9,440 bases of DNA from positions 1-9,440 of the forward strand of contig WGDF01000179.1 in the NCBI GenBank assembly GCA_015493405.1. Direction: 5' to 3'. The DNA is from Flavobacteriaceae bacterium. Lineage in GTDB: Bacteria; Bacteroidota; Bacteroidia; Flavobacteriales; Flavobacteriaceae. Shown here piece by piece: positions 1-8,603 of this stretch. The position numbers and the translations under genes were made by a program. The notes beneath the pieces were generated by a model. That model ran no database searches, was not told where the DNA came from, and saw nothing but the letters and a program-made list of their open reading frames with translations. Numbering within the stretch: position 1 is the first letter of the stretch; every line of letters starts with the position of its first letter.

Positions 1-555
1 GCCCGCTTTAAACGGAAATTGCGGTGTTTTTTGTGCAAAAACCAATCCGGCAAAATCGTCTAATTGTGATGTATCACCTTCGGGAATATTTTCCAAAATT
101 ATAACATCATCATTAAAATGGTTAATAGCGACGATAAACCGGTAAAAGCCGTAAGACATTTCGGGAATATTATCTTTTTTGGGTTTGGGTTCAAAATCAA
201 ACGTGTCGAAATATTTGACCGCTTCAAAACCGGTAAACCCGTATAACCCGTTAAACTGCTTGGTTTTACCGGATTGACTGACATTGATTTGTTTGACAAA
301 TGATTTTAAGCCATTTTTGACTGTATCCGGCTCGTTAATTTCCGTTTCTTTATCGTTGATTATCAACGTGTTGTTTTGAATTTTAAACTGTTCCAAACGA
401 CCGGCAACAATAAAAGTAAAACTATTTTTATCGCTGTTGTAGTCGGAACTTTCGAGCAATAAGCTTTCGGGAAACCGGTCACGTATCCGGAGATACACGC
501 CCACGGGCGTGATTAAATCGGCAGGTTTTTCAATGATTTTGGTTTGGTATTTCAT
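1..555 (-). CDS. trpE: Anthranilate synthase component I, N-terminal part (cut by window edge)
   Basis: TrpE makes anthranilate from chorismate with ammonia or with glutamine through TrpG, the first committed step of tryptophan synthesis, in the cytoplasm. The frame is open from the ATG at 555 to the left edge (185 codons), so the catalytic chorismate-binding C-terminal half lies outside. The N-terminal domain is recognisable: TPVGVYLRIRDRFPESLLLE at about residues 16-35, with L33-L34-E35-S36 matching the LLES element that forms the tryptophan feedback site in known TrpE proteins. A later stretch, YGFYRFIVAINHF, also fits the family. Paralogues such as PabB or menaquinone isochorismate synthases are less likely because of the LLES site and the Trp-codon leader peptide upstream (809-865). 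It should be the first structural gene of a trp operon running leftward. It sits about 190 bases beyond an attenuator terminator, with repeat-like DNA between. Confidence 0.93.
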   Translation of the reverse strand, partial: MKYQTKIIEKPADLITPVGVYLRIRDRFPESLLLESSDYNSDKNSFTFIVAGRLEQFKIQNNTLIINDKETEINEPDTVKNGLKSFVKQINVSQSGKTKQFNGLYGFTGFEAVKYFDTFDFEPKPKKDNIPEMSYGFYRFIVAINHFNDDVIILENIPEGDTSQLDDFAGLVFAQKTPQFPFKAG

Positions 556-748: not shown

Positions 749-778
749 AAAAAGCTTGCCGGATTCGGCAAGCTTTTT
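749..778 (-). terminator. trp attenuator terminator hairpin
   Basis: This is a perfect 13-bp inverted repeat: AAAAAGCTTGCCG (749-761) and CGGCAAGCTTTTT (766-778) around a 4-base loop. On the minus strand the stem is followed by a T-rich run (TTTTTTGTTT), as expected for a Rho-independent terminator. It starts 30 bases after the trpL stop codon and lies about 190 bases before trpE, so it is placed to stop transcription before the structural genes. The symmetric A and T runs mean it could also work on the plus strand, but no plus-strand gene lies to its left. Confidence 0.85.
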
Positions 779-808
779 GAATATGTTATATGCAAAACAG
801 CGACTCCC

Positions 809-865
809 TTATCCGGTTATGGAACAGGTTAAACGCCACCAAAATTTTGCAACAAATAAATTCAT
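809..865 (-). CDS. trpL: trp operon leader peptide
   Basis: This short ORF encodes 18 residues, MNLFVAKFWWRLTCSITG, with tandem TGG codons at positions 9 and 10 (836-841). Leader peptides of this kind act by translation itself: with little charged tRNA-Trp, the ribosome stalls at the Trp codons and a terminator further down cannot form. Three features support it: a TAnnTTTG promoter 20 bases before the ATG, the terminator hairpin at 749-778, and trpE as the next gene. The AT-rich upstream sequence AGAAAGAA before ATG would suit initiation. The stop codon overlaps a segment (811-816) complementary to the terminator loop, which fits the expected antitermination logic. It is too short for standard gene callers. 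No homologue search was possible, so the call rests on its composition and position. Confidence 0.85.
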   Translation of the reverse strand: MNLFVAKFWWRLTCSITG

Positions 866-884
866 TTCTTTCTATCTTAAAGCA

Positions 885-913
885 CAAATGTATAATTTTT
901 TTTTAAAACTCAA
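885..913 (-). promoter_or_regulatory. Promoter of the trp leader/operon
   Basis: On the minus strand, TTG (913-911) is followed after 18 bases by TACATTTG (892-885), a full match to the Bacteroidota housekeeping promoter pattern TTG-N17-23-TAnnTTTG. Transcription should start near 879, about 14 bases before the trpL ATG. The promoter lies in the 77-base gap between the stop of the outer-membrane gene (943) and trpL. Confidence 0.75.
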
Positions 914-7451: not shown

Positions 7452-8603
7452 TTACATTTTTTCTATGACTAAATTATTAGAACTTTCTTTTTTGGCGTAA
7501 GAGATAATTTTATGCACCATTTGATAATAATAATCAGGGTTTTCGACAAAATCTATATCACTAATATCCAAAATCAAGATATTGAGATCTTTTTGTGTTT
7601 TGATAAAATTCATATAACCCTCATGAATCTGTTCCAAATAATCTCCGGTTATAGACTGCTCATAGGAACGACCTCGTTTTTTAATATTTTGCAACAAGCG
7701 TTCCACATTTTGATACAGATAAATGTATAAATCGGGTTTGACCAAATCTTTATACATAAAATTAAAAATTTTACGGTATAAAGCGTATTCTTCATCAGAA
7801 AGCGTAACTTTAGAAAAAATTAAAGATTTAAACACAAAATAATCGGAAATAACAGATGTTTTGAATAAATCATACTGAGATAAATCATCAGTTAATTGCT
7901 GATAACGGTCTGCCAAAAAAGACATCTCCAAAGGAAAAGCATAACGTTTCTGATCCTCGTAAAATTTGGGTAAAAAAGGATTTTCTTCAAATCGTTCCAA
8001 AACCAATTTGGCATTCACATCTTTGGCAAATTGCGTTGCAAAGGTCGTTTTTCCCGCACCGATATTACCTTCGATAGCAATAAAATTATATGGTAAATTA
8101 TTAACACTCAATTGTTTATCAATTAAAATAGGTTTAGTTTTATCAGAAGATAAAGTTAGTAATTCTTTATGATTTTTTTGTAAAAGGGGATGAAAAAAAT
8201 CCGGCAAAATGTCATCTAAAGGCTTCAAAACAAAATTTCGCTCATGCAAATGCAGATGTGGAATTTGCAAATCTTTGGTATTTAGAACCTTATGATTAAA
8301 ATATAAAATATCAATGTCTATTGTTCTGTTATGGTATTGGCCTTCTAAAGACTTTTGGCTGCGTCCTAAAATCCGCTCTATTTTTTGGGTCAATTTTAAA
8401 ACTTCAGATGGCGCTTTATACGTTTCTAGCAAAAGAATGGTATTGAGAAAATCCGCCCCCTTAAATCCCCATGCTTTGGTTTGGTAAACCGGTGCAATTT
8501 TTAAGATTTTACCAACAAACCAATTCAAATAATTAACTGCAGATTGTAAATTGTCAAATTTAGATTCCAAATTACTGCCTAAGGCCAAAACCACTTTATT
8601 CAT
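7452..8603 (-). CDS. folK: Bifunctional FolK (HPPK)-deoxynucleoside kinase fusion
   Basis: Two enzymes are joined in 383 residues. Residues 1-150 are 6-hydroxymethyl-7,8-dihydropterin pyrophosphokinase, a folate-pathway enzyme that transfers pyrophosphate from ATP: LALGSN (6-11), AWGFKGADFLN (44-54), the metal-binding NRTIDIDIL (92-100, D96 and D98) and RNFVLKPL (122-129). An arginine of the usual GRxR motif is Q here (GRSQ, 80-83). After a linker, residues 172-383 form a deoxynucleoside kinase that phosphorylates a deoxynucleoside: P-loop GNIGAGKTT (179-187), ERFEENPF (203-210), SDYFVFK (253-259) and the lid RGRSYEQ (310-316). Substrate preference (dA, dG or dC) cannot be read from this. The frame is continuous with no internal stop. 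It starts 21 bases after the ZIP gene stop, so the two are probably cotranscribed. Confidence 0.93.
   Translation of the reverse strand: MNKVVLALGSNLESKFDNLQSAVNYLNWFVGKILKIAPVYQTKAWGFKGADFLNTILLLETYKAPSEVLKLTQKIERILGRSQKSLEGQYHNRTIDIDILYFNHKVLNTKDLQIPHLHLHERNFVLKPLDDILPDFFHPLLQKNHKELLTLSSDKTKPILIDKQLSVNNLPYNFIAIEGNIGAGKTTFATQFAKDVNAKLVLERFEENPFLPKFYEDQKRYAFPLEMSFLADRYQQLTDDLSQYDLFKTSVISDYFVFKSLIFSKVTLSDEEYALYRKIFNFMYKDLVKPDLYIYLYQNVERLLQNIKKRGRSYEQSITGDYLEQIHEGYMNFIKTQKDLNILILDISDIDFVENPDYYYQMVHKIISYAKKESSNNLVIEKM

What the first reader, a model, noticed from the sequence alone, without database searches (positions are those of the whole stretch)
749..913. Complete trp attenuation system in a Bacteroidota-like genome
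Seen in order on the minus strand: a TAnnTTTG promoter (913-885), an 18-codon ORF with tandem Trp codons at residues 9-10 (865-809), a perfect 13-bp terminator followed by Ts (778-749), then trpE. Ribosome-mediated attenuation is established in Enterobacteria; it is much less described in Bacteroidota, where initiation seldom uses Shine-Dalgarno pairing and coupling is less studied. The ORF is short enough to be missing from standard annotation.
Basis: partly seen in the sequence, partly recalled or inferred. Interest (0 to 1): 0.75.

Follow-up and report, generated by a model that had tools for sequence, protein, structure and literature searches.

The report
Tryptophan-starvation switch ahead of trpE
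Ahead of a bacterial tryptophan-making gene lies a tiny open reading frame with two neighbouring tryptophan codons and an RNA hairpin, conserved in its relatives, which likely work as a switch that lets the gene be copied only when tryptophan runs short; switches of this kind were already predicted in this phylum, but I found no description of the way this one would disarm its stop signal.

Summary
In detail: on the minus strand lie a TAnnTTTG box (892-885), an 18-codon ORF with tandem Trp codons (865-809; Trp 841-836), a perfect 13-bp terminator (778-749) and trpE (from 555). The element is present in 10 of 13 same-genus genomes. The idea is not new for the phylum: Rfam RF01692 (Bacteroid-trp) hits 116 of 149 sampled genomes of the window's family, and a 2019 paper applies it to Flavobacterium psychrophilum. 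The window is a divergent relative (34.2 bits; gathering score 49). I add a candidate for the missing half of the switch: a hexamer at the leader stop codon (CCGGAU, 816-811) complementary to the terminator's loop and 3' arm (AUCCGG, 764-759). The complement starts 23-25 nt from the first base of the last two Trp codons in 64 of 67 leaders, while its distance to the stop codon floats, and it changes in step between lineages (CCGGAU/AUCCGG, ACCGGG/CCCGGU, UCGUGA/UCACGA). Folding gives this antiterminator with a ribosome on the Trp codons or the next three, not at the stop codon or without ribosome; E. coli trpL, modelled alike, uses the terminator's 5' arm. Verdict: very likely a ribosome-mediated trp attenuator, a new variant of a known kind; regulation untested.

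The parts
885..892 (-). -7 promoter box TACATTTG (TAnnTTTG type)
   Evidence: such a box upstream of the leader ATG in 11 of 14 clade leaders and 57 of 75 overall (2.7 expected); consensus TAnnTTTG named in PMC9723704
809..865 (-). leader ORF MNLFVAKFWWRLTCSITG*, tandem Trp codons at 841-836
   Evidence: Trp codons and ORF kept in relatives; translation not tested
835..851 (-). strand 1: 5' side of the predicted protector hairpin (UGCAAAAU 851-844 and GGUGGC 840-835, with the Trp codons)
   Evidence: pairs with 804-791; 90.8 and 94.0% of cells paired in these two helices over 14 leaders
821..828 (-). strand 1b: CCUGUUCC, pairs with 814-807 (strand 2 region) in the predicted ribosome-free fold
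   Evidence: helix 6, 85.7% of cells paired, no change on both sides
811..816 (-). strand 2: candidate antiterminator hexamer CCGGAU, overlapping the stop codon
   Evidence: complementary to 764-759; best complement 23-25 nt from the first base of the last two Trp codons in 64 of 67 leaders
791..804 (-). 3' side of the protector hairpin (GUCGCU, GUUUUGCA); part of it pairs with the terminator's 5' arm in the predicted antiterminator
749..778 (-). intrinsic terminator, 13-bp stem, loop AAUC, running into T's
   Evidence: over 57 leaders 8 of 13 pairs change on both sides, 91.9% of cells paired; not flagged by the pattern scan
759..764 (-). target of strand 2: AUCCGG, end of the terminator loop plus start of its 3' arm
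   Evidence: 387 of 402 cells paired over 67 leaders; changes on both sides at pairs 1, 4, 5, 6
1..555 (-). trpE (N-terminal part; runs off the contig)
   Evidence: PF04715
556..748 (-). DNA between terminator and trpE, holding dispersed repeat pieces
   Evidence: 19 matches to parts of it in the own genome, one of them itself

Best explanation
This is a trpE leader with a short Trp-codon ORF and a terminator that likely works as a ribosome-mediated tryptophan attenuator, in which a ribosome stalled on the two Trp codons would free an RNA segment at the stop codon to pair with the terminator's loop and 3' arm and so would let transcription run into trpE. Steps: (1) shown by sequence: ORF, Trp codons, terminator, trpE, conservation. 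(2) shown by comparison: strand 2 (816-811) is complementary to loop plus 3' arm (764-759), differs in step with it between lineages, and keeps its distance from the Trp codons, not from the stop codon. (3) predicted by folding: with a ribosome on the Trp codons (RNA taken as free from 14 or 17 nt on, a footprint recalled from E. coli), or on one of the next three codons, the antiterminator forms as the 3' arm emerges; with a ribosome at the stop codon strand 2 is covered and the terminator forms; with no ribosome a hairpin holding the Trp codons hides strand 2 and the terminator forms. (4) inferred, not tested: that the ORF is translated, that ribosome and polymerase run close enough together, and that trpE rises when charged tRNA-Trp falls.
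For: Conservation: this leader in 10 of 13 same-genus genomes. Complementarity of strand 2 to loop plus 3' arm: 62 of 75 leaders p<0.05 against 500 single-base shuffles each, the window at p 0.03; mean score 16.2 for own pairs, 13.7 for pairs taken from different leaders. Pair counts over 67 leaders: 387 of 402 cells paired; pair 1 C-G/U-A, pair 4 G-C/U-A/C-G, pair 5 A-U/G-C, pair 6 U-A/A-U. Position: best complement, searched over the whole stretch, at +23 to +25 of the first base of the last two Trp codons in 64 of 67, against -10 to +22 of the stop codon. Two loci found later by model search (L128, L129) carry a further matched pair, CAGUGA/UCACUG, read by eye. State folding: with 6 nt of the 3' arm out, target-upstream pairing above 0.5 in 45 (stalled), 0 (stop) and 2 (no ribosome) of 75 leaders; with 4 nt out 42, 0 and 9; with 8 nt out 22, 0 and 0. 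Dinucleotide-shuffled controls: mean 0.08 against 0.59 (window 1 of 40 shuffles as high). Window: P(strand 2:target) 0.94-0.99 for 3-7 nt of 3' arm out with the ribosome on the second Trp codon, 0.00 at the stop codon and without ribosome. Positive control: E. coli trpL, modelled in the same way in a separate script, gives its textbook switch. No TrpR match and no T-box over cut-off in the own genome, which is 91% complete.
Against: No expression data. At full length the terminator is the more stable fold in every state, so antitermination must be kinetic; the same holds for E. coli in this model. Codon specificity is not sharp: a ribosome placed on codons 11, 12 or 13 also gives the antiterminator (0.54-0.99 at 3-7 nt). 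30 of 75 leaders do not exceed 0.5 in the stalled state with 6 nt out. 13 of 75 show no significant complement: L008 (same genus as the window), L012, L013, L015_0, L016_0, L018, L021, L045, L107, L109, L110, L111, L112. Eight leaders (two of L015, L016, L018, L019, L021, L089, L109) were left out. The register of the pair count was chosen among 7 offsets by best pairing. 47 of the 67 have the identical pair UCGUGA/UCACGA, so the signal is a contrast between a few lineages, not many independent events. In the window's own clade of 14, 3 of the 5 pairs of the outer helix never vary; over the antiterminator 5 pairs change on both sides, with 14 of 500 shuffles as high. For the protector 3 pairs do, 159 of 500 shuffles as high, and three slid versions show more (6, 4 and 7).
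Confidence: 0.84

Rival explanations
1. Attenuation in the plain E. coli manner: strand 2 frees transcription by pairing with the terminator's 5' arm, and the match to loop and 3' arm is only a by-product of strand 2 resembling the 5' arm.
For: The window's predicted antiterminator also takes up the 5' arm (GG with CC, GCU-UUUUG with CAAAA-AGC), and in the clade of 14 the helix that includes these pairs holds 4 of the 5 pairs with changes on both sides. E. coli uses the 5' arm.
Against: Across 67 leaders 4 of 6 pairs with loop plus 3' arm change on both sides; the 5'-arm part was not counted across lineages. The target includes loop letters that the terminator stem does not need.
Confidence: 0.15
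2. The strand 2:loop pairing makes a pseudoknot that helps the terminator rather than opposing it.
For: The lower stem AAAAAGCUUG:CAAGCUUUUU could in principle coexist with strand 2 on the loop; the folding used does not score pseudoknots.
Against: In the fold strand 2 takes bases of the loop-closing pairs of the stem, and it is available in the starved state but not at the stop codon or without ribosome, which would turn the operon off when Trp is short.
Confidence: 0.06
3. A protein- or tRNA-sensing leader (TrpR operator, TRAP, T-box) with the ORF incidental.
For: Other phyla do this for trp (recalled).
Against: No TrpR match at E<=1; no T-box over cut-off, best 17.8 bits against 93, in a genome that is 91% complete; Trp codons unchanged in 8 same-genus leaders while much of the rest varies. 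TRAP was not searched.
Confidence: 0.03
4. A constitutive terminator of an upstream transcript plus a chance ORF.
For: The mechanical scan flags neither terminator nor sigma-70-type promoter on this strand (that scan does not cover other promoter types).
Against: ORF, Trp codons, strand 2, terminator and -7 box are kept together in relatives.
Confidence: 0.01

Closest known systems
RF01692 Bacteroid-trp (Weinberg et al. 2010, PMC2864571)
   Same: Upstream of trpE in Bacteroidota, short ORF with Trp codons, hairpin holding them, then a terminator arm of the GGCUUGUC type; the window aligns over the whole model, 1-131.
   Different: Window scores 34.2 bits, gathering score 49. It has two Trp codons and CCGGAU/AUCCGG; the RF01692-matching leaders fetched mostly have three and UCGUGA/UCACGA. 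The Rfam structure line holds only the Trp-codon hairpin and the model stops inside the terminator's 5' arm, so loop, 3' arm and antiterminator are not in it.
E. coli trpL attenuator (RF00513 Trp_leader)
   Same: Leader peptide with GWWR, three mutually exclusive foldings, same outcome when modelled in the same way; strand 2 starts 20 nt from the first base of the Trp codons in E. coli and 25 nt in the window.
   Different: E. coli strand 2 (CGGGC) pairs with the terminator's 5' arm only; the window's pairs with loop and 3' arm and, further in, 5' arm. RF00513 scores 27.5 on the window against a gathering score of 41.
Leader-peptide attenuation reported or suggested in Flavobacterium psychrophilum (PMC9723704, passages; PMC6414381, one passage)
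   Same: Same phylum; amino-acid operons, in one paper the trp operon with Bacteroid-trp.
   Different: The passages I saw give no antiterminator and no test by mutation.

Membership tests
Ribosome-mediated amino-acid attenuator (trpL kind) | short ORF with tandem regulatory codons just after the promoter | tested here: met
Ribosome-mediated amino-acid attenuator (trpL kind) | intrinsic terminator between leader ORF and first structural gene | tested here: met
   (sequence and covariation); one search's pattern scan did not flag it
Ribosome-mediated amino-acid attenuator (trpL kind) | antiterminator mutually exclusive with the terminator and freed by a ribosome on the regulatory codons | tested here: met
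   by folding and comparison only:
Ribosome-mediated amino-acid attenuator (trpL kind) | protector hairpin that hides strand 2 when no ribosome is present | tested here: inconclusive
   folds; 85.6% of cells paired, covariation score reached by 3 of 500 shuffles, but pairs with change on both sides no more than in shuffles (159 of 500) and fewer than in three slid versions
Ribosome-mediated amino-acid attenuator (trpL kind) | leader is translated and read-through depends on charged tRNA | not testable with these tools
   needs expression data
RF01692 Bacteroid-trp | score at or above the gathering score of 49 bits | tested here: not met
   34.2 bits, E 0.032-0.034; no match in the own genome at E<=0.01
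RF01692 Bacteroid-trp | place upstream of trpE with Trp-codon ORF and Trp-codon hairpin | tested here: met
   alignment over 1-131/131
RF00513 Trp_leader | score at or above 41 bits | tested here: not met
   27.5 bits
T-box leader (RF00230) | score at or above 93 bits | tested here: not met
   one match in the genome, 17.8 bits, on another contig
TRAP-controlled leader | TRAP protein and (G/U)AG repeats | not tested
   no search made

The most novel reading that the evidence does not exclude
Bacteroidota trp leaders form a class of their own that works by loop capture: a segment set at a fixed 23-25 nt from the stalling codons, wherever the stop codon lies, seizes the terminator at its loop and loop-closing 3' arm as these leave the polymerase, so that the hairpin cannot start to close; this would mean that a phylum without Shine-Dalgarno initiation keeps ribosome and polymerase in step closely enough for codon-level timing, and that the whole regulated trp operon has moved between lineages with its switch.
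Probability: 0.5. Interest if true: 0.6.

Novelty: new variant of a known kind. Interest (0 to 1): 0.45.

Why it matters
Trp leaders in Bacteroidota have been listed since 2010, but none of the passages I saw gives the switch itself. A named candidate antiterminator with compensatory changes and a fixed distance from the stalling codons turns 'a structured leader' into a mechanism that a few base changes can test, and it offers a simple reporter for whether transcription and translation are closely coupled in a phylum that starts translation without Shine-Dalgarno pairing.

Tried and rejected
Rfam at gathering cut-offs found nothing in the window; only a permissive search gave RF01692, Phe_leader and Trp_leader, all below their cut-offs, among 29 weak matches. 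Peptide conservation as evidence of translation: rejected, since changes in the ORF are mostly non-synonymous (17 against 125). Stop codon as the fixed point of strand 2: rejected. Full-length equilibrium folding as the readout: rejected, the terminator wins in all states, in E. coli too. MAFFT on whole leaders put strand 2 out of register between lineages, and a second alignment that began at strand 2 put a gap inside it, so pairs were counted from letters, strand 2 from its start and the target anchored on the 3' arm. Search with my own model in the class: 4 of 385 genomes, the own one among them, with stricter filters that lose weak matches; the window's version seems rare outside its genus. 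Paper searches (listings, then passages of eight papers) showed no description of this antiterminator; they cover open-licence PubMed Central papers only, and no supplement was read.

Full report
WHAT IS THERE. The minus strand reads, in order: a -7 box TACATTTG (892-885), 19 nt, ATG (865), an 18-codon ORF MNLFVAKFWWRLTCSITG ending at 809, a 30-nt spacer, a 13-bp hairpin with loop AATC (778-749) running into T's, 193 nt, and trpE from 555. The finding's coordinates are right. The genome is fragmented (2.07 Mb, 395 contigs, 91% complete); its closest named kin are MAGs called Flavobacteriaceae or Flavobacteriales bacterium. In a same-genus contig (L124) the genes after the leader carry, in order, the Pfam domains of TrpE, TrpG, TrpD, TrpC, TrpF, a PLP enzyme in the place of TrpB, and TrpA.

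CONSERVATION. Same-genus loci carry the same leader: MTLFIAKFWWRLTCSITG, MSLFIAKFWWRLTYSITG, MTLFVVKFWWRLTFFPAG, MNLFVAKLWWRFTFSRSG and others. Of 13 same-genus genomes (own included), 10 have this type; G005 has a WWW leader and a TrpE only 37% identical; G003 and G010 have neither a TrpE match nor a match to my model R1. Most leaders matched had been used to build R1. G006 has two copies, one cut by a contig end. In 8 same-genus leaders the pairwise codon differences are 17 synonymous and 125 non-synonymous, with the Trp codons unchanged, as expected if the peptide matters for its Trp codons and the RNA for its folding.

WHAT IS KNOWN. Rfam family RF01692 Bacteroid-trp is the same kind of element. 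At E<=0.01 it matches 116 of 149 sampled genomes of the window's family (94 over cut-off) and 34 of 296 sampled from the phylum (27 over cut-off). The window scores 34.2 bits against a gathering score of 49, so by Rfam's own rule it is a divergent relative, not a member. The Rfam structure line holds only the Trp-codon hairpin, and the model ends in the terminator's 5' arm. In print: Weinberg 2010 lists the motif (PMC2864571, passages); PMC6414381 (one passage) sets Bacteroid-trp upstream of the F. psychrophilum trp operon beside E. coli attenuation; PMC9723704 (passages) reports clues of leader-peptide attenuation ahead of amino-acid operons in the same species. In Naville and Gautheret 2010 (PMC2965389, passages) no word beginning with 'bacteroid' occurs in the main text. 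Ten paper searches showed no description of the antiterminator below.

THE ANTITERMINATOR. From 109 loci plus the window a script kept ORFs with ATG, TGGTGG and a downstream hairpin with T's: 98 records, 9 of them copies of the same contigs, 89 left, 75 after near-identical ones were removed. Loci failing the script (for example L014, no hairpin over threshold; L017, TTG start; L003, cut leader) are not in the set. 46 of the 75 came in as RF01692 matches, for which I held only the best 30 of each search. For each leader I asked whether the stretch between Trp codons and terminator is complementary to the terminator's loop plus the first 5 nt of its 3' arm: 62 of 75 at p<0.05 against single-base shuffles, the window at 0.03; 13 not, among them L008 of the same genus. 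RF01692 cannot have selected for the target, since its model ends before loop and 3' arm. In 67 leaders (8 left out beforehand: two of L015, L016, L018, L019, L021, L089, L109) 387 of 402 cells of the hexamer pair (register chosen among 7 offsets). The pairs differ on both sides at positions 1 (C-G/U-A), 4 (G-C/U-A/C-G), 5 (A-U/G-C) and 6 (U-A/A-U). The main types are UCGUGA/UCACGA (47 of 67), CCGGAU/AUCCGG (6, the window's) and CCGGGU/UCCCGG (2, where ACCGGG/CCCGGU is the full match in one). Three loci from the later class-wide search were not in this set; L128 and L129 show CAGUGA/UCACUG and L130 CCGGGG/CCCCGG (read by eye). When the hexamer was searched over the whole stretch, it started 23-25 nt from the first base of the last two Trp codons in 64 of 67 (the others 17, 20, 43), while its place ranges from -10 to +22 of the stop codon and from 18 to 45 nt before the terminator. 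A segment that keeps its distance from the Trp codons and not from the stop codon is what a stalled ribosome would need.

THE THREE STATES. I folded the part of the leader that a ribosome would leave free, at growing transcript lengths; the footprint is recalled from E. coli. Window, ribosome on the second Trp codon: CCGGAU:AUCCGG at 0.94-0.99 while 3-7 nt of the 3' arm are out, with further pairs into the 5' arm (-18.4 kcal/mol with 7 nt out); from 8-9 nt on the terminator takes over. On the first Trp codon 0.54-0.99, on codons 11 to 13 likewise 0.54-0.99, so any stall from codon 9 to 13 would do. At the stop codon and without ribosome 0.00 throughout. Over 75 leaders, with 6 nt of the 3' arm out, target-upstream pairing exceeds 0.5 in 45 (stalled), 0 (stop) and 2 (no ribosome); with 4 nt out 42, 0, 9; with 8 nt out 22, 0, 0. 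Shuffling the stretch before the terminator lowers the stalled mean from 0.59 to 0.08. E. coli trpL, modelled in the same way, gives the textbook result, but with strand 2 on the terminator's 5' arm and loop and 3' arm free. At full length the terminator is the stabler fold in all states in both, so antitermination has to be kinetic.

COVARIATION IN THE WINDOW'S OWN CLADE. 14 leaders (A2): antiterminator 89.8% of cells paired, 5 pairs changed on both sides (14 of 500 shuffles as high), covariation score above all 500 shuffles and all slid versions; in its outer helix 3 of 5 pairs never vary. The protector is kept (85.6%) with a covariation score that 3 of 500 shuffles reach, but 3 pairs changed on both sides (159 of 500 as high), fewer than in three slid versions, and its outermost helices pair in only 76.2 and 42.9% of cells. 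Terminator over 57 leaders: 8 of 13 pairs changed on both sides, none of 500 shuffles as high. The structures were derived from the window's own folds, which favours them against slid versions.

ORIGIN. In a tree of TrpE N-terminal parts (91 rows) the 11 rows of the window type, three TrpE of MAGs named Saprospiraceae and L040 lie on one side of a long branch with support 100/100, away from the other family members including same-genus G005. The CCGG-type leader goes with this TrpE type where a leader could be read. Transfer of the operon together with its switch is the simplest reading, but MAG bins and names may be wrong (one contig, L035, with the TrpE of G002 is filed under Campylobacteraceae), the same-genus G012 row groups weakly with the Saprospiraceae rows, and the tool warns of long branches in the tree.

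VERDICT. As a discovery in the phylum it is not new. The antiterminator, its place and its target are, as far as the searches show, new detail, and they make a direct test possible.

Noticed in passing
window 748-556: The DNA between terminator and trpE holds dispersed repeat pieces: parts of it give 19 matches in the own genome (one is itself), at 70-100% identity. The leader ATG lies 131 to 339 nt before trpE in seven leaders of the window's clade.
   Followed up: partly
L016:102-370 and L015 (G037, G052): Two Trp-Trp-Trp leaders in a row ahead of one trpE. In L015 the script found a terminator after each; in L016 only after the first, though an imperfect hairpin with T's is visible after the second: a possible tandem attenuator.
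   Followed up: partly
L019 / L126 (G005): A same-genus genome has a different trp operon (TrpE 37% identical) with a WWW leader, so two trp operon lineages seem to occur within one genus.
   Followed up: partly
L043-L045: MAGs named Saprospiraceae carry TrpE and leader of the window's type (WW, CCGG element), which suggests transfer of operon plus switch, or misnamed bins.
   Followed up: partly
L035: A contig filed under a Campylobacteraceae MAG encodes a TrpE part identical, over the columns compared, to that of G002 of this genus; probably a binning error.
   Followed up: no
window 7452-8603 minus: A 383-aa ORF whose sequence looks like a folate-pathway kinase (HPPK-like) fused to a deoxynucleoside kinase; recalled motifs, no search made.
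   Followed up: no
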